64,000 bases of DNA, from assembly GCA_026018925.1 (NCBI GenBank), contig JAKSZU010000002.1:54516337-54580336 (forward strand), written 5' to 3'. The position numbers and the translations under genes were made by a program. The stretch is from Tupaia tana. Taxonomy: Eukaryota; Chordata; Mammalia; Scandentia; Tupaiidae. How positions within the stretch are numbered: the first letter of the stretch is position 1; each line of letters starts with the position of its first letter. The notes under the pieces are model-generated. The model searched no databases, was not told the DNA's origin, and saw only the letters and a list, made by a program, of their open reading frames with translations. Of the stretch, positions 8,994 through 53,560 are shown one piece after another.

Positions 8994-8996
8994 TAC

Positions 8997-9008
<12 letters not shown>
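8994..9008. repeat. target-site duplication, left copy
   Basis: TACATGTGCATTTTT occurs here and again at 12,568-12,582, exactly flanking the composite element. The right copy is followed by AAAGG, so the original site reads TTTTT/AAAGG, an L1-endonuclease-type nick site on the plus strand. That is the strand expected for an element whose poly(A) reads out as poly(T) here. Confidence 0.92.
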
Positions 9009-9027
<19 letters not shown>

Positions 9028-9032
<5 letters not shown>

Positions 9033-9411
9033 TTTATTTTATTTTATTTTTTTTTTTATTACATTGAATTACATATAACTTTACAGTGTATTACATTGCT
9101 TTTTCAAAAGGGAATGCCATGCATGTCAGTCAGTACAGAGACATTAATCTCCCCGCTTCAACATTCAATATCTTTCCTATGTTTCCCCCAATCATTATTA
9201 TTATTATTCTAATTATTTTTTATGATAAACATGATTTTTTTTTTTCCAATTATCAGATCATAAAGTTCCCAACAATAGGGAACATAGGCTCCACTCAGGG
9301 CTGGACCAAGGGTGGGTCTCGTGCAGCCCCGCAAATGTAGGTGAATTTCCATGGAACACAGTTTCAGGAATGCGGCTCAGGAAATCAGAGATGGCCATCA
9401 ACTGATGCGGC
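9028..9411 (-). mobile_element. 3' terminal segment of the composite element
   Basis: After the A-rich tail (TTTTA-type runs to about 9,060), 9,061-9,240 matches the solo copy at 53,341-53,560 on the other strand. Shared landmarks are GACATGCATGGCATTCCC and AAGCAATGTAATACACTGTA in element orientation. Its length, position and tail resemble the L1 3' UTR ends at 22,190, 46,440, 46,880 and 62,530, though sequence similarity to those is weak. The part at 9,241-9,411 is found nowhere else in this window. Confidence 0.7.
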
Positions 9412-10537
9412 ACGCGGGGCAGACCCCGGCCAGGGCACACGGGGCAGACCCCGGCCACAGCACGCGGGACAGAGCCCCGGCCACGGCACGCGGGGCACAC
9501 CCCGGCCAAGGCTCGCGGGGCACACCCCGGCCAAGGCTCGCGGGGCAGACCCCGGCCAAGGCTCGCGGGGCACACCCCGGCCACGGCACGCGGGGCACAC
9601 CCCGGCCAAGGCTCGCGGGGCACACCCCGGCCAAGGCTCGCGGGGCACACCCCGGCCAAGGCTCGCGGGGCACACCCCGGCCACGGCACGCGGAGTCAGA
9701 GCCCCGGCCACGGCACGCGGGGCAGACCCCGGCCACAGCACGCGGGACAGAGCCCCGGCCGTGGCACGCGGGGCAGACCCCGGCCACGGCACGCGGGACA
9801 GAGCCCTGGCCGCGGCACGCGGGGCAGACCCCGGCCGCGGCACGCGGGGCACACCCCGGCCAAGGCTCGCGGGGCACACCCCGGCCACGGCACGCGGGGC
9901 ACACCCCCGCCAAGGCTCGCGGGGCACACCCCGGCCAAGGTTCGCGGGGCACACCCCGGCCAAGGCTCGCGGGGCAGACCCCGGCCAAGGCTCGCGGGGC
10001 ACACCCCGGCCACGGCACGCGGGGCAGACCCCGGCCGCGGCACACGGGGCACACCCCGGCCGCGGCTCGCGGGGCACACCCCGGCCGCGGCTCGCGGGGC
10101 AGACCCCGGCCGCGGCTCGCGGGGCACACCCTGGCCAAGGCTCGCGGGGCAGACCCCGGCCAAGGCTCGCGGGGCACACCCCGGCCATGGCACGCGGGGT
10201 CAGAGCCCCGGCCACGGCACGCGGGGGCAGAGACCCGGTAGGGCCGGACCTACGGGTAGGGCATGCGGAGCAGAGCCCCGGCCACAGCACGCGGGGCAGA
10301 CCCCGGCCGCGGCACGCAGGGCAGACCCCGGCCAAGGCTCGCGGGGCACGCCCTGGCCAAGACTCGCGGGGCAGACCCCGGCCAAGGCTCGCGGGGCAGA
10401 CCCCGGCCAAGGCACGCGGGGCAGACCCCGGCCACGGCACGCGGGGCAGACCCCGGCCAAGGCACGCGGGGCAGACCCCGGCCACGGCATGCGGGACAGA
10501 GCCCCGGCCACGGCACGCAGGGCAGAGCCCCAGTCGG
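9412..10537. repeat. 25-bp CpG-rich minisatellite (VNTR)
   Basis: About 43 head-to-tail units, mostly 25 bp, with some 26- and 27-bp variants carrying GGGACAGAG or GGGGTCAGAG. The unit pattern is GGGGCA(C/G)ACCCCGGCC, then A/G-rich GGC, then CGC. One counted unit is 20/25 G+C, and units contain three or four CpGs. Variants (CAC vs CAG; AAGGCTCGC vs ACGGCACGC) are interspersed. The unit contains CGGGG-CACA-CCCCG, a short hairpin. With 25-bp units every frame repeats after 75 bp, and CG-rich units lack stops, which explains frames of 448 codons (plus) and 415 codons (minus). I do not regard these as genes. Confidence 0.93.
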
Positions 10538-10682
10538 GCCGGACCTCCAGACAGGGCACGTGGAGCGGAGCCCCAGCGCCCTGACCCCGCGCCCCAGCAC
10601 ATGGAGTGGAGCCCCCGCGCCCACCTCCCCACCCCCGCGCGCCGGCACGTGGAGCGGAGCCCCCGCCTGCCTCCCCTGGACG
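10538..10682. repeat. degenerate GC-rich margin of the VNTR
   Basis: This part keeps the composition of the VNTR but has a longer period. CACGTGGAGCGGAGCCCC-like motifs recur at about 10,557, 10,599 and 10,644 (spacing about 42-46 bp). The GGGCCGGACCT motif at 10,536 also occurs at 10,241 inside the array, next to a similar GGAGC(A/G)GAGCCCC. This marks a repeated block boundary. Confidence 0.75.
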
Positions 10683-11171
10683 TTTAATTGTATCTAGTAC
10701 TTCTTGTATATTATTCTCAAAGTTTTGGGCCATTTTCTCAGTCTTTATGGTGGACCTTCCTAGGCCAGCCATTTTCTTTTCTACATTAGAGATTCCATTT
10801 TCTGAATGATCTAGTCTGCTTTAAATACTTTCAAGGGAGATTTTGACTTCTTGTATTATAGCCTTCATCTCTAACAGGTCCATCTGATTCTTTTGTAAAG
10901 TGTGAAATTCCTCTTTTAGATCTTGCATGTATTACCTCACCTCCTAGAACTCTTCAGCTCCTTTCTTCTTCCCCTTCAGCAGTTCCTTGTCTCTCTTCTC
11001 TTCAATCTCTGTTAGCTTTGCCATTATGAATGATCTGAGTTGTTTATCAGACATTTCCATGAATTCCCTTGAACTGTGTGTGGATGAAGAGGAGCTATCC
11101 GTTTCAATTGGAGGAGAGGCATTTTCCTGCTTCCCCATATTTCTTGTGGTCCTGCAGCGATTTCTAGTCAT
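10683..11171 (-). pseudogene. truncated L1 ORF1 (N-terminal part) with premature stop
   Basis: The start codon complement CAT lies at 11,169-11,171, in the same context as the half-L1 copy at 48,414-48,416. The predicted N-terminus begins MTRNRCRTTRNMGKQENA, then a serine-rich patch, MSDKQLRSFIMAKLTEIEEK and a lysine-rich helix. The frame ends at a TAG (10,941-10,943) where the half-L1 has a Gln codon (CAG). Further down, homology resumes at the region encoding KTEKMAQ(N/K)FEN.IQEVLDTI and then stops abruptly at the GC-rich margin. The RRM and C-terminal RNA-binding domains of L1 ORF1p are gone. The product, if made, would be about 75 residues without the RNA-binding part. Confidence 0.8.
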
Positions 11172-11385
11172 CTGGTGGATGGTCGGTTTCTTCCCAAACT
11201 TTTGAAGTTTAATATGAGGGTTGAGAAGTGTGCAGAAAAGGAAGCAGCGAGAGGGAAACAATACCAACAACAACAGAAAAAAACAGACAAGAAACAGAGA
11301 AATGGAAGAGAAAAGCTTTGGAATAAGTCTAAAAGAGAAAAATTGATATTAAAAAAATTTCAATAAAGATCAAAAATTAGAAAAC

Positions 11386-11411
11386 CGCGCGGCGCGCTAG
11401 CGCGCCGCGCG
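11386..11411. repeat. perfect 26-bp CpG palindrome
   Basis: Each arm is CGCGCGGCGCGCT read inward, and the centre is CT/AG. Pairing is perfect over 13 bp per arm (checked base by base). It sits between the monomer array and the ORF1 leader. A decayed copy lies at the equivalent place in the half-L1 (48,795-48,820), with changes mainly of the CpG to TpG/CpA type. It could form a strong hairpin in RNA or serve as a dyad protein site. Confidence 0.9.
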
Positions 11412-11585
11412 AAATGTCTACATCTCAGGAGCCATGGAGCAGGCTGTCTCTTGAAGAAGGGCTGTTCTGGGAGGAGGAGAGGGGATTATTAACAAAACAA
11501 AGGCCTAGGAGGGAGGGGCCAAAGGGCCCTGTAAGAAGCCTCACCTTAAAAAATTCTAAAAAGCAAAAATTAAAAAAAAAAAGAC

Positions 11586-11620
<35 letters not shown>

Positions 11621-12567
11621 GAGGTAAAGAGAGAGACCAAGATTGATTCAGAGACAGGAGATATGAAAGGGGTTTTCCTACCATGTGGGATTTTGTATGC
11701 TGGAGGCCCAGTTAGGAGTGGGACATCTTTCTTTCTCCCAGCATGTCTACATCTCAGGAGCCATGGAGCAGGCTGTCTCTTGAAGAAGGGCTGTTCTGGG
11801 AGGAGGAGAGGGGATTATTAACAAAACAAAGGCCTAGGAGGGAGGGGCCAAAGGGCCCTGTAAGAAGCCTCACCTTAAAAAATTCTAAAAAGCAAAAATT
11901 AAAAAAAAAAAGACAGACAGACAGAGAGAGAGAGAGAGAGAGAGTGAGAGGTAAAGAGAGAGACCAAGATTGATTCAGAGACAGGAGATATGAAAGGGGT
12001 TTTCCTACCATGTGGGATTTTGTATGCTGGAGGCCCAGTTAGGAGTGGGACATCTTTCTTTCTCCCAGCATGTCTACATCTCAGGAGCCATGGAGCAGGC
12101 TGTCTCTTGAAGAAGGGCTGTTCATGTGGGATTTTGTATGCTGGAGGCCCAGTTAGGAGTGGGACATCTTTCTTTCTCCCAGCATGTCTACATCTCAGGA
12201 GCCATGGAGCAGGCTGTCTCTTGAAGAAGGGCATGTGGGATTTTGTATGCTGGAGGCCCAGTTAGGAGTGGGACATCTTTCTTTCTCCCAGCATGTCTAC
12301 ATCTCAGGAGCCATGGAGCAGGCTGTCTCTTGAAGAAGGGCTGTTCATGTGGGATTTTGTATGCTGGAGGCCCAGTTAGGAGTGGGACATCTTTCTTTCT
12401 CCCAGCATGTCTACATCTCAGGAGCCATGGAGCAGGCTGTCTCTTGAAGAAGGGCTGTTCATGTGGGATTTTGTATGCTGGAGGCCCAGTTAGGAGTGGG
12501 ACATCTTTCTTTCTCCCAGCATGTCTACATCTCAGGAGCCATGGAGCAGGCTGTCTCTTGAAGAAGG
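11412..12567 (-). promoter_or_regulatory. tandem L1-type 5' UTR monomers
   Basis: Copies begin (plus coordinates) at 11,682, 12,009, 12,123, 12,232, 12,346 and 12,460, each with CATGTGGGATTTTGTATGCT. The one from 11,682 is long (327 bp). The next are 114, 109, 114 and 114 bp, and the last is cut at 108 bp by the insertion end. A further partial long copy runs 11,412-11,681. Short monomers lack a 213-bp block (GGAGGAGAGG...GGTTTTCCTA, with a (GA)n tract). L1 elements of mice and several other mammals use tandem 5' UTR monomers as promoters, so promoter activity is an inference by family. Similarity to 48,824-49,260 shows the L1 origin. Confidence 0.82.
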
Positions 12568-12582
12568 TACATGTGCATTTTT
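12568..12582. repeat. target-site duplication, right copy
   Basis: Exact second copy of TACATGTGCATTTTT. It joins directly to the last base of the monomer array (...GAAGAAGG) and is followed by AAAGGATATG. It defines the 5' end of the composite insertion. Confidence 0.92.
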
Positions 12583-22129: not shown

Positions 22130-23370
22130 CTATATCTTTTTTTTTCTATGTTTTATTTTTCTATTTATTTATTTTTACAGTTTTAAACTTACCTTTAATC
22201 ATTGTACATCTTTACAGTGTTCAAAATATTTTTTTCCCAGCCTGAATGTAGTACATATCAGTCAAGTGAAATATACTACATACATTATCATCAAGAGATA
22301 ACTTGTTAGTTTTGTGTCTTTAAATTTTTTTTTTTTTCTGGTGTTGCCCTCCCTCCAAACTCCTATAAACCTCACCCTCCTATACTGTCTCTGGTATCTA
22401 TAGTTACCTCCCTGCTATAATACCTTCCAATATTTCAGTTTCTGTGATGGAGTGTGGGCATTCAGTATATATTAAGCATGGATATATAATGCTTATCTTT
22501 CATAGTCTTGCTTGTTTCACTTAAGTTAAATCTTCAATAGTCATCTAAGTTGTATCAGATGTCAGGGTTTCATTTTTTTTTTATGGCTTAGTAATATTCC
22601 ATAGAGTATATGCCTCATTTTTTCAATTTGGTCATCTGTTCTTGGACATTTGAATTGATTCCATATGTTAGCAATTGTGAATAATGCTGCAATAAACATG
22701 AATGTGTAAATGCTTTTCTGACTGAATATTTTCCTATTTTTGGAGCAAATATAGGGGAGTTGAATTACTGGATTATATGGTAGTTCTATTTGGAGGTTTT
22801 TGAGGAGCCTCTGTATTGTTCTTCACAGTGGTCATATTAATTTACATTCTGACCAGCAGTGTAGGAGAGATCCCTTTTAACTGCAGCCTTGTCAGCACTT
22901 TTCCTTCTTTATTTCTTAGTCATTCTTACTAGAGTTAAGTGGTATCTCACTGTGGGTTTGATTTGCATTTCTCTATGATAAGAGATGCTGAGCATTTTTT
23001 CAGAATTTTTTAGCCATTCATGTATCTTCCTTTGCCATTGTCTGTTTAGCTTATTTGCCTATTTTTAAATTGGATTTTTTTTTGGGGGGGTGGAGCTGCT
23101 TGAGTTCCCTGTATATTCTGGTTATCAGTGCCTTGTCTGAGGCTTAGTTTGCAAATATATTCTCCTGTTCTGAGTGATGTCACTTTACTCTGTTGTTTCT
23201 TTTGCTGTGCAGAATCTTTTTAGTCTGTTGCACTCCCACTTGCCAATTTCTAGGATTGTTACCTGTGCTGTGAGGGTCTTATTTATGAAATATTAGTCTA
23301 CTACAATGTCTCCAAGGGTTGCCCCCCGCCCCGCCCCCTATGTTTTCTACCAGCAGCTTTATAGCTTGAA

Positions 23371-46411: not shown

Positions 46412-46850
46412 CTTTTTTTTTAATTTAAATTTATTTGTTTATGTTTATTCACTGTACATCATTACAGCATACAAAATGAGATTTTCCATCCAGAGTACAC
46501 TGTATACTGTCTCAATCAAGCACATCAACATACATGTTATTGTCAACAAATAATTTTCCATTTCTTGTTTCCTGTATGTTTTGCTTCCCCCCCCCCCATC
46601 CTTGATTCCCTATCTCTTACCCTCTGCCATCTCTCACTCTCTTCCCACACTGTTTCTGGTATCTATGTTTACTTTCTATACTGTTCCCCCCCCCCATTTT
46701 TATTGAATTACCAAAGATCTTAATTAATCTAAATATTTTCATAGCAAACACAGCTGATATATACATTTCCATGAACACAATTCTAACTTTAGGCATCCTA
46801 TAAAGTAGCACCTAGCTGGGGCTCTATATCTTACTGCGGTTATCGAATGG
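46412..46850 (-). mobile_element. L1 3' end fragment, antisense
   Basis: A poly(T) end is followed by TTCACTGTACATCATTACAG, CATACAAAATGAGATTTTCC, a poly(C) run and CTATCTCTTACCCTCTGCCA, CTGTTTCTGGTATCTATG. The same order is found in the adjoining 3' UTR at 46,870-47,160. It is truncated at its 5' side. Confidence 0.68.
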
Positions 46851-47422
46851 ATTTTTTTTTTTCTGAAACTTTTTTTTTTTTTTGTAACTTAATTTACATT
46901 CTTTCCCTAAGCATCATCACAGCATACAAAATGTGATATCCCATCCAGGATATACTGCATAGTGACTTAATCATGCATATTATTATCAAAAATTTTCCAT
47001 TTATACTTCCTAGAATTTTTTACCCCTCTTTCTGATCCTCTGTCGTTTCCCACCCTCTTCTCCCACTGTCTCTGGTGTCTACAATTGTCTTCCATTCCTT
47101 TTCCACCCACATTGTATTGATCACACAATTTCTTAAATAATCTAACTACTTTCAATGGTAAGTTCATATGGTACTATTAAGAAAACCAGTTTTAACTTAA
47201 ATCATAGAAATGCTAAGGAACTTTGCTTAAAGCCAGGAAACAGGTTAGGATTCTGTTCAAATGGTAGGTGCATGAACCTATCAGTCTCATGTACTTTATC
47301 TTCTGTTCTGGTTCCATTTTTCCTATTAAATTCTGGGATATAATATTCAACTCCAGACTTGTCCCTCTGATTAAGCTGGCCACTTTCTTAGTTTTTGAAC
47401 TCTTCTTTCCATGTGCCTGTAT

Positions 47423-48416
47423 TTAATTTTCCTGATATAGCACACCCTTGAGAACTTCTTGGAGATCTGGTCTGGTGCTGGTAAATTCTTTCAGGTTTTG
47501 TTTATCTGAGAATGTTCTTGTCTTTTCTTCCCACCTGAAAGATAATCTTGCCGGGTACAGTATTCTCAGCTGAAATTGCTTTTCTCTTAACACTTTGAAT
47601 ATATTTTCCCATTCTTTCCTCACTCGCATCGTTTCCGATGAGAGGTCTGCTGTTATCCTGATGGGATGTCCTTTGTAGGTAACTTGCTGTTTCTCTCTTG
47701 CCAATCTTAGTATCTTGTCTTTGTCTGTGGTTTTGGTCAACCTGGCTATAATGTGTCTTGGAGAAGATCTTCTTGGGTTGATTCTATTTAGGGTCCTTTG
47801 TATTTCTTGGGACTGGATCTTTGAATGTCTCTCTAGGTTTGGGAAGTTTTCTTGCAGGATTTCATGAAATAGATTATCAATGCCTTTATGGGTCTCTTCG
47901 CCTTCTGGAATGCCAATTATCCGGATGTTTGGATGTCTGATGGTATCTAGTACTTCTTGTATATTCTCAAATTTTTGTGCCATTTTCTCAGTCTTCATGG
48001 TGGATTTTTCTAGGCCAGCAATTTTCTCTTCTACGTCTGAGATTCTATTTTCTGTATGATCTTACGTGCTTTTAATACTTTCAAGGGAGATTTTGACTTC
48101 CTGTATTATAGACTTCATTTCTAACAGTTCTGTTTGACTCTTTTGTAAAGCATGTAATTCCTCTTTTAGATCTTGCAAGGACTTCCTCACCTCCTGGAAC
48201 TCGTCAACTTCTTTCTCCTTTCTCTTTAGCAGTTCATTTTCTCCTTCTCTTCCATCTCAGTTAGCTTCGCCATTATGAATAAATTCTTTATCAGACATTT
48301 CCATGATTTGCTTTGAACTGCTTGTGGATAAAGAGGAGTTATTTTTTCTCCCTTGGAGGAGAGGTATTTTCTTGCTTTCTGATATTTCTTGTGGTCCTGT
48401 GGTGATTTCTTGTCAT
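47423..48416 (-). pseudogene. L1/HAL1 ORF1 (RNA-binding protein), frameshifted
   Basis: The reading frame from the CAT at 48,414-48,416 begins MTRNHHRTTRNIRKQENT and soon hits a stop (frameshift in an A/T run near 48,340). The downstream 191 codons (47,423-47,998) are open and carry classic ORF1p landmarks: RIIGIPEGEE, ENFPNLERHSK, RHIIARL, AREKQQVTYKG, RILYPARLSF and FSDKQ. This covers the RRM and the C-terminal domain, which normally bind L1 RNA as a trimer. Full length would be about 331 residues, usual for L1 ORF1p. The coiled-coil part is damaged. Confidence 0.82.
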
Positions 48417-48794
48417 CTGATGGATGGTGTGTTTCTTTCGAATTCTTGAAGTTCAATCTGAGTGTTCAGGAGCAAGCAGAAAGAGGTGATCTGGAATCTC
48501 TTTGCCGTTCTGTTGTGATCGCTGGTGCAGCAGATTCAGTAGATATTGAGGAATATGTTAACCCTAATAGCATTTGGATGTTTAGCTACAGTGCCCTTAG
48601 ATCCATCTAGAAACACATTAAATGGATATTGAAGAGTGGAGAGACAAGAAAAAAGAACATGAAAAAAAGAGAAAGAAACAACAAAGAGGAAAAAAAGACA
48701 AAAAAACAAAAAAAATTGTAATTATTGTTTTTCCTTAAAAAACAACAACACCACAACAAAAAATTAAAAAAAAAAAAAAAACAAAATAGAAAAC

Positions 48795-48820
48795 TGCGCA
48801 GCATGCTAGCGTGCCACGCG
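48795..48820. repeat. decayed copy of the CpG palindrome
   Basis: Same position relative to ORF1 and monomers as 11,386-11,411. GCTAGC at the centre is intact. Four pairs are broken, and the differing bases are C-to-T or G-to-A changes at CpG positions, as expected from methylated-C decay. Confidence 0.78.
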
Positions 48821-49280
48821 AAATGACTAGATTGCAGGAGCCATGAGGAATCCTCTTCTGAAGGAAAGCCTCAACTCTCCTGCCTGGGTGGAAGGACCAG
48901 AGGGGATTATTAACAAAACAAAAGGTAGAGCTGAGAGCAAGAGAAAAACTTTACCTTTAAAAAAATCATAAAAAGGAAAAATTACAAAAAAATGAGAAGA
49001 CAGGAGCAGAGAGAGACAGAGACCTCAGAGACACAGAGGCAGAGATAGAAGGCCAGAGGGGCTCCCTACCACACTAGCTTTGTTTGCTGGAAGCTGAATT
49101 ATGAGTAGAAAATCTTCATTTCTCCTGTCCCCTGAAATGACTAGATCGCAGGAGCCATGAGGAATACTCTTCTGAAGGAAGGCCTCAACTATCCTACCTG
49201 CGCAGAAGGACCCAAGAGAACTTTCTTATCCCCATGGGCCAGGATGTGCTTGCTGGGCTTCTGTTTTTAAGACACATACT

Positions 49281-51558: not shown

Positions 51559-51912
51559 TCTTAATGGTTTCGAGGTGAATATCTTTATATCCAAAGAACA
51601 AATTGCTAATACTCTCATTAATTTAATATTGTCAGACTTAGCTGGAAAAGTGCATACAGCACATCAAGTTAACTTTTAATTCCAGATAAACAATGACTAT
51701 TTCTTAGGGTAAGTATGTCCTAGGAAATATTTGGGACATACTTACACTAAAACTTTATCTGTTATTTATATAAAATTAAAATAATTGATAATGCTGTATT
51801 TTATCTGGCAACCGTAAATTTTAGGTAGGTTATTAAAACTTAGTTCGGAAAAATTTGTTTAACTCTTTTTCCCTAGGTTGTCCTCTTAGAAATTAAGACC
51901 TGTCTTCTAGCT

Positions 51913-53340: not shown

Positions 53341-53560
53341 AAAAAATAATTGGAATAATAATAATAATGATTAGGAAAAACAATGAAAATATATTGAACG
53401 ATGAAGTGGGGAGATTAATGTCTCTCTATTGACTGACATGCATGGCATTCCCTTTTGAAAAAGCAATGTAATACACTGTAAAGTTATATGCAATCCAATG
53501 TAATATAAACAAGACTATGATGATAATAAAAATAAATAAATAAATAATTAAAGAAAAAAG
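53341..53560 (+). mobile_element. solo copy of the composite element's 3' terminus
   Basis: AATAATAATAATAATGATTA, GGGGAGATTAATGTCTCT, GACATGCATGGCATTCCC and AAGCAATGTAATACACTGTA match 9,061-9,240 in reverse, ending in an (AAAT)n tail. Only the 3' terminal part is present, as expected of a 5'-truncated retroinsertion. I found no clear target duplication. Confidence 0.75.

What the first reader, a model, noticed from the sequence alone, without database searches (positions are those of the whole stretch)
9004..12567. A composite, VNTR-carrying, L1-derived retrotransposon that moved as one unit
Parts that normally do not sit together (L1 5' UTR monomers, an ORF1 stub, a CpG-rich 25-bp VNTR and an L1-like 3' end) lie between two exact copies of TACATGTGCATTTTT at a TTTTT/AA site, with a poly(A) tail at the correct end. 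So the chimera already existed as an RNA before insertion and is a retrotransposon family or a transcribed chimera, not a local rearrangement. It would be a non-ape analogue of SVA/LAVA, built on a half-L1 backbone. I know of no named family with this structure, but I could not search.
Basis: partly seen in the sequence, partly recalled or inferred. Interest (0 to 1): 0.88.

Follow-up and report, generated by a model that had tools for sequence, protein, structure and literature searches.

The report
VNTR-carrying half-L1 composite retrotransposon family
This stretch is one copy of a young, repeatedly copied mammalian jumping element that joins the front of a LINE-1 element to a GC-rich tandem repeat, much as the ape SVA and LAVA elements do but made of other parts.

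Summary
The 3.56-kb element (minus strand, 12567 to 9009) lies between exact 15-bp target duplications (8994-9008, 12568-12582). The host genome holds at least 306 exact copies of the ORF1/VNTR join and 242 of the VNTR/3'-module join (reversed-pattern control 0 each). All 20 copies fetched by the first join have the order L1-type 5' monomers, 5' UTR, ORF1 stub, VNTR (0.55-3.1 kb), 3' module; 19 of 20 reach the L1-type tail (L019 stops short). Target duplications score 10 or more in 20 of 21 copies; 12 of 20 sites are TT/AA; six further copies start inside the VNTR. ORF1 codon 65 is a stop in 21 of 21, so the family is non-coding and most likely moved in trans by L1 ORF2p (inferred). The youngest subfamily is 0.23% from its consensus. 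Three ORF2-bearing L1 3' ends read lack the VNTR. A second composite with a 19-bp VNTR shares the 3' module. It works like SVA/LAVA but is not a member (no Alu-like 5' region). New variant of a known kind. Host unnamed; Dfam/Repbase not searchable here.

The parts
12568..12582 (-). target-site duplication, 5' copy (relative to the element)
   Evidence: exact 15-mer
11414..12567 (-). L1-type 5' UTR monomer array (327-bp monomers plus 114-bp deletion monomers), inferred promoter
   Evidence: array of 370-2926 bp in the 21 copies; related monomers in an older L1/HAL1 at 48823-49185
11196..11413 (-). non-repeated 5' UTR with a CpG-rich palindrome at 11386-11411
   Evidence: palindrome complete in the young consensus, 24 of its 26 bases in the older one
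10686..11195 (-). ORF1 stub (about the first half of L1 ORF1). ATG at 11136-11138, first in-frame stop at 10944-10946, so 64 codons
   Evidence: 84% to a young HAL1 ORF1
10536..10685 (-). GC-rich edge: diverged first VNTR units, conserved between copies
   Evidence: 93-100% identity in 20 of 20 fetched copies
9408..10535 (-). GC-rich, CpG-rich VNTR of 25-bp units
   Evidence: 547-3069 bp, edge included, in the 21 copies
9222..9407 (-). 3' module, not in the three ORF2-bearing L1 3' ends read; about 82% to a second composite
9009..9221 (-). L1-type 3' UTR tail with A-rich end (the last A residues are shared with the duplication)
   Evidence: 86% to 53341-53559; 76% to the tail of composite B
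8994..9008 (-). target-site duplication, 3' copy
   Evidence: exact 15-mer

Best explanation
This is one insertion of a young, multi-copy, non-coding composite non-LTR retrotransposon. Shown: the order 5' monomers, 5' UTR, ORF1 stub, 25-bp VNTR, 3' module, L1-type tail, A-rich end; hundreds of copies of each join; target duplications; TT/AA sites; 5'-truncated copies; a stop at ORF1 codon 65; two subfamilies. Inferred: RNA polymerase II starts in the L1-type monomers; the RNA ends at the L1-derived 3' tail with poly(A); an L1 ORF2 protein supplied in trans nicks at TT/AA and copies the RNA by target-primed reverse transcription. ORF1p could come from L1 or from the abundant HAL1. The VNTR grows and shrinks between copies. 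The join to the 3' module has six bases (GTGCCG) common to a VNTR unit and to the related sequence of composite B, which fits a microhomology-guided origin.
For: 306 exact copies of a 28-bp ORF1/VNTR join and 242 of a VNTR/3'-module join, reversed-pattern control 0 and 0. All 20 copies fetched around the ORF1/VNTR join have the order through to the 3' module, 19 of 20 through the L1-type tail (the fetch was chosen by that join, so only the other parts are independent). Target duplications scoring 10 or more in 20 of 21 (19 of 21 above 10; 420 swapped-flank controls: mean 7.4, 95th percentile 10, maximum 18). TT/AA at 12 of 20 insertion points (L024 dropped, no duplication) against 447 of 13528 A-run starts in the flanks. 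Six more copies, chosen among the 3'-module hits that were not in the list and so likely to lack that join, start inside the VNTR; 5 of 6 have duplications seen by eye, without a control. Codon 65 is TAG in 21 of 21 copies; the HAL1 has CAG there. Divergence from own consensus 0.23% (8 young copies) and 1.85% (13 older).
Against: No transcript or mobilisation data. The driver is inferred: ORF2-bearing L1s with long open frames exist (926 aa at most among 150 scored), but no intact one was read; the one sampled has its C-terminal letters in another frame, and its 3' UTR shows no similarity to this tail. L024 has no target duplication found, and L019 scores at control level, though a 15-bp repeat is seen on a closer look. 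L019 also lacks the end of the 3' segment and an A-rich tail. Several duplications are short or A-rich (L016, L018, L023, L025), and the control reached 18, so single ones below that are not conclusive. 8 of 20 sites are not TT/AA.
Confidence: 0.93

Rival explanations
1. It is an ordinary L1 whose own 3' UTR carries a VNTR, with ORF1 C-terminus and ORF2 deleted.
For: Both ends are L1-type, and 5' monomers occur in the host's L1/HAL1.
Against: Three ORF2-bearing L1 3' ends read (window 22137-22600; L022; L062) have no VNTR and no 3' module. In all 14 loci read from the 3'-module search (11 distinct copies) the module directly follows a VNTR; but these are among the top 40 scored of 1194 candidates, so a more distant L1 carrier is not excluded.
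Confidence: 0.05
2. It is a spliced L1 RNA reinserted (SpIRE-like), the ORF1/VNTR join being a splice junction.
For: Internal loss between ORF1 and the 3' end.
Against: In the young HAL1 the sequence at the break runs CGTCC|AAATATCC with no GT donor (the true parent was not read). Splicing would not create a VNTR, and the 3' join carries microhomology.
Confidence: 0.03
3. Local rearrangement, assembly chimera or segmental duplication.
For: Two tandem arrays make assembly harder.
Against: Hundreds of exact joins over many contigs, different flanks, own target duplications, two sequence subfamilies.
Confidence: 0.01
4. It is a HAL1 element with a VNTR, moved mainly as part of the HAL1 programme.
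For: The host has an abundant young HAL1 (132 of 132 scored ORF1 hits without stops, 86177 candidates; one read in full has no ORF2; in 16 of 16 sampled others the 500 bp after ORF1 is the HAL1 3' UTR).
Against: HAL1 is defined by a complete ORF1; here ORF1 is cut, has a stop in 21 of 21 copies and is 84% identical to the young HAL1, and the 3' tail differs.
Confidence: 0.15

Closest known systems
SVA (SINE-R/VNTR/Alu), hominoids
   Same: Non-coding composite with a central GC-rich VNTR of varying length; L1-type insertion footprint; mobilisation by L1 in trans (shown for SVA, inferred here).
   Different: No CT-hexamer/Alu-like 5' region; no SINE-R that I recognise (not compared by a call). 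The 5' end is an L1 promoter with an ORF1 stub; VNTR unit 25 bp against the 35-50 bp given in PMC5753468 (passages read).
LAVA, PVA, FVA (gibbons)
   Same: VNTR plus 3' end taken from other elements; in LAVA part of the 3' end is L1-derived (PMC4432496, passages read).
HAL1 (half-L1)
   Same: L1 5' UTR, ORF1 start and an L1-type 3' end, no ORF2.
   Different: HAL1 encodes ORF1p (PMC5753468, passages read); here ORF1 is cut with stops, and a VNTR and another module follow.
Composite B of the same genome (L026 7572-9901 and L043 1-385)
   Same: GC-rich VNTR upstream of the homologous 3' module and an L1/HAL1-type 3' UTR, with a target duplication.
   Different: 19-bp VNTR unit, another 5' part, a longer 3' UTR; the two VNTRs hardly align (one 30-bp hit).

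Membership tests
VNTR composite retrotransposons SVA/LAVA/PVA/FVA | central GC-rich VNTR | tested here: met
VNTR composite retrotransposons SVA/LAVA/PVA/FVA | 5' CT-hexamer and Alu-like region | tested here: not met
   5' end is L1-type monomers in 20 of 20 fetched copies
VNTR composite retrotransposons SVA/LAVA/PVA/FVA | 3' end SINE-R, or AluSz/L1ME, PTGR2 or FRAM parts | tested here: inconclusive
   3' end is a module plus L1-type tail of this host; not compared with the reference sequences
VNTR composite retrotransposons SVA/LAVA/PVA/FVA | hominoid host | tested here: inconclusive
   host unnamed; Alu core 23-mer absent from the 64-kb window with up to 3 mismatches; tRNA-type SINEs instead (by eye)
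L1-mobilised (trans) element | A-rich tail, target duplications, TT/AA sites, 5' truncation | tested here: met
   exceptions L019 (no tail) and L024 (no duplication found)
L1-mobilised (trans) element | dependence on L1 ORF2p | not testable with these tools
   needs a cell assay
HAL1 | complete ORF1 without ORF2 | tested here: not met
   ORF1 cut; stop at codon 65 in 21 of 21 copies
Autonomous L1 | intact ORF1 and ORF2 | tested here: not met
   the 20 fetched copies run from ORF1 stub into the VNTR and 3' module, leaving no place for ORF2

The most novel reading that the evidence does not exclude
VNTR composite retrotransposons arose independently outside the ape lineage. This host carries a clan of at least two (25-bp and 19-bp VNTRs) that swapped 5' parts and VNTRs around one shared 3' module, like SVA/LAVA/PVA in apes. 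The youngest family is still, or was until very recently, active, fed by an L1/HAL1 machinery.
Probability: 0.65. Interest if true: 0.82.

Novelty: new variant of a known kind. Interest (0 to 1): 0.74.

Why it matters
Two papers state in their abstracts that VNTR composite retrotransposons are specific to hominoid primates (PMC4432496, PMC7353768); the first also names an ancestral SVA2 in macaque (passages). A second, unrelated set with a VNTR in the same place would show that a GC-rich array between an L1-compatible 5' part and a 3' end is a convergent solution, not an accident of Alu history. It makes the open question of what the VNTR does testable: compare unrelated VNTRs (25-bp, 19-bp, ape 35-50-bp) in one mobilisation assay. 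The CpG-rich VNTR beside monomers with almost no CpG also allows tests of silencing.

Tried and rejected
Local rearrangement, assembly chimera, splice product, VNTR native to the L1 3' UTR, and plain HAL1 were considered and rejected or down-weighted as given under rivals. I first read the second composite (L026) as having a tRNA-SINE head; L043 showed that it is inserted into the SINE (target repeated on both sides), and the notebook entry is corrected. A bacterial-genome scan for the contaminant protein P0001 gave 36 pattern stretches, none a relative; a viral-contig scan for the join gave 0; a phage search gave none; Rfam at gathering thresholds found only mir-1302 at 51701-51752. Literature: searches; no listing that I saw pointed to a VNTR composite outside primates, but only open-licence PMC papers are held and I saw listings, abstract starts or passages only (passages: PMC4432496, PMC5753468, PMC5872511; PMC7353768 in the listing). 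Bao and Jurka 2010 on HAL1 is not held. Species: a cytochrome b search of the host was sent four times, never answered, and dropped; from memory the SINEs resemble those of colugos, which no call supports.
Full report
What is there. The exact 15-mer TACATGTGCATTTTT occurs at 8994-9008 and 12568-12582 and nowhere else in the window. Between the copies, read on the minus strand, lie: 5' monomers of 327 bp with a 114-bp deletion form (11414-12567); a non-repeated 5' UTR with a 26-bp CpG-rich palindrome (11196-11413); about the first half of an L1 ORF1 (10686-11195), this region being 82% to an older L1/HAL1 copy in the same window over 563 bp; GC-rich edge units (10536-10685) and a 25-bp VNTR (9408-10535); a 186-bp module (9222-9407); an L1-type tail with an A-rich end (9009-9221). 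The VNTR with its edge has GC 0.80 and CpG observed/expected 0.82, against 0.24 for the window; the monomers here have no CpG, those of the other 20 copies 0-7 each.

It is a family. The window's own assembly is held (2.95 Gb, 1198 contigs). A 121-bp query over the ORF1/VNTR join gave 1295 candidates; 40 were scored and all 40 match at 97-100%. An exact 28-bp pattern for that join occurs 306 times and one for the VNTR/3'-module join 242 times, with 0 for the reversed controls. I fetched 20 copies: 20 of 20 show monomers, 5' UTR, ORF1 stub, edge, VNTR and 3' module in order; in 19 the 3' segment runs to its end, while L019 stops at position 201 of 350. They were chosen by the ORF1/VNTR join, so that join is not independent evidence; the rest is. 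Element lengths are 2295-5456 bp, VNTR with edge 547-3069 bp, monomer array 370-2926 bp over the 21 copies with the window (the length for L024 rests on a weak end).

It moved through RNA. A script found target duplications scoring 10 or more in 20 of 21 copies; L024 failed (7), and L019 (10) is at the level of the control's 95th percentile, though a closer look shows a 15-bp repeat at its two ends. The control of 420 swapped flank pairs had mean 7.4, 95th percentile 10, maximum 18. After shifting over A's shared with the tail, 12 of 20 targets are TT/AA (L024 dropped), against 447 of 13528 A-run starts in the flanks. A-rich ends are plain in the young copies (23-25 of the last 25 bases in 8 of 8) and weaker in older ones (13-22 of 25 in 13; L019, L021, L024 and L025 have 15 or fewer, L024 at an uncertain end and L025 with other letters in between). 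The 3' module found 40 scored copies of 1194 candidates. The 14 loci read from that search (8 cut by it, 6 fetched; 11 distinct copies, four of them seen before) all have the module directly after a VNTR. The 6 fetched ones, which I chose because they were not in the list, start inside the VNTR, as 5'-truncated L1-type insertions do; I see duplications by eye in 5 of 6 (not L040), without a control. L014, L025 and L039 carry other letters between A-rich runs, which may be 3' transductions.

It does not code. ORF1 codon 65 is TAG in 21 of 21 copies; the young consensus has two more stops in the stub, the older one none. The family is therefore non-autonomous. Divergence from own consensus over the 878-bp core is 0.23% (8 copies, young) and 1.85% (13 copies, older; 1.23% outside CpG). 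With a mammalian rate of about 2.2e-9 per site per year (recalled, host rate unknown) that is about 1 and 6-8 million years.

Where the parts come from. Related monomers lie upstream of other L1/HAL1 ORF1s (window 48823-49185; L061). The host has an abundant young HAL1: the ORF1 query P0001 gave 132 scored hits of 86177 candidates, all at 98% without stops; one read in full has ORF1, no ORF2, and a target duplication by eye, and in 16 of 16 sampled others the 500 bp after ORF1 are the same 3' UTR at 97.8-99.8%. The stub is 84% to that ORF1. The break falls after CGTCC or CGTCCA; no GT donor is present in the HAL1 at that place. The 3' tail is 86% to 53341-53559 of the window and 76% to the tail of composite B. 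Three ORF2-bearing L1 3' ends (window 22137-22600, L022, L062) have no VNTR and no module.

A second composite. In the flank of L026 a GC-rich head, a 19-bp VNTR of about 58 units, 270 bp of unique sequence, a module 82% identical to the window's over 143 bp, and an L1/HAL1-type 3' UTR lie inserted in a tRNA-type SINE, with the target repeated on both sides. Its unique part has 40 of 40 scored copies at 96-100% of 2006 candidates, and the exact VNTR/unique join occurs 11 times, control 0; the whole of no other copy was read. The two VNTRs do not align beyond one 30-bp hit. The match to our module begins six bases inside our VNTR (GTGCCG), so the 3' join has microhomology.

Mechanism. Best reading: transcription from the monomers, poly(A) after the L1-type tail, capture by L1 ORF2p in trans, target-primed reverse transcription. 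The insertion footprints are shown; promoter, transcript and driver are inferred. ORF2-bearing L1s with long open frames exist (926 aa at best; 150 scored of 35011 candidates). The end of that one was read: its C-terminal letters lie in another frame than the long one, so it is not shown intact, and its 3' UTR is unlike this tail. The specific driver is open.

Comparison. SVA, LAVA, PVA and FVA share a 5' CT/Alu-like region and a central VNTR and are described as specific to hominoids (PMC4432496, passages; PMC7353768, abstract start in listing), with an ancestral SVA2 in macaque (PMC4432496, passages). This family has the VNTR and the L1-type insertion footprint but not the Alu-like part, so it works like them without being a member. 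It also fails the HAL1 definition (encodes ORF1p; PMC5753468, passages). L1 5' UTRs with tandem repeats are known in horse, mouse and rat (PMC5872511, passages), so the monomers alone are not novel. I found no paper on such a family; Dfam and Repbase were not available, and automated libraries may hold pieces of it under an L1 or HAL1 name.

Host. Unnamed. The Alu core 23-mer is absent from the window with up to 3 mismatches, and the named mammalian ORF1 matches among the 120 listed are 48-57% (baboon, horse, pig and others). That it is no ape is an inference.

One search was added.

Noticed in passing
L026 7572-9901 and L043 1-385 (C364): A second VNTR composite with a 19-bp unit, sharing the 3' module; its unique part is in at least 40 scored copies (2006 candidates).
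   Followed up: partly
L044 1013-3328 and 16 sampled loci L045-L060: An abundant young HAL1 family: 132 of 132 scored ORF1 hits without stops; no ORF2 in the one read in full, and the HAL1 3' UTR directly after ORF1 in 16 of 16 sampled others.
   Followed up: partly
P0001: A protein annotated as Streptomyces narbonensis GCM10010230_68260 is 98% identical to this mammal's HAL1 ORF1: probably mammalian DNA in a bacterial assembly.
   Followed up: partly
window 46420-49185, minus strand: Older HAL1 copy: 5' monomer remains, ORF1 with Pfam Transposase_22 and Tnp_22_dsRBD, directly followed by a 3' UTR, no ORF2.
   Followed up: yes
window 11386-11411: A perfect 26-bp CpG-rich palindrome in the 5' UTR, kept in the consensus of both subfamilies (24 of 26 bases in the older) while the adjacent monomers have almost no CpG; possible factor site.
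   Followed up: no
L014, L025 and L039 3' ends: Other letters between A-rich runs, possible 3' transductions that could trace source copies.
   Followed up: no
L019 3' end: A complete 5' end but the last 149 bases of the 3' segment and the A-rich tail are missing, with a 15-bp repeat at both ends: priming from inside the RNA, or a later loss.
   Followed up: partly
window 51701-51752: Rfam mir-1302 match.
   Followed up: no
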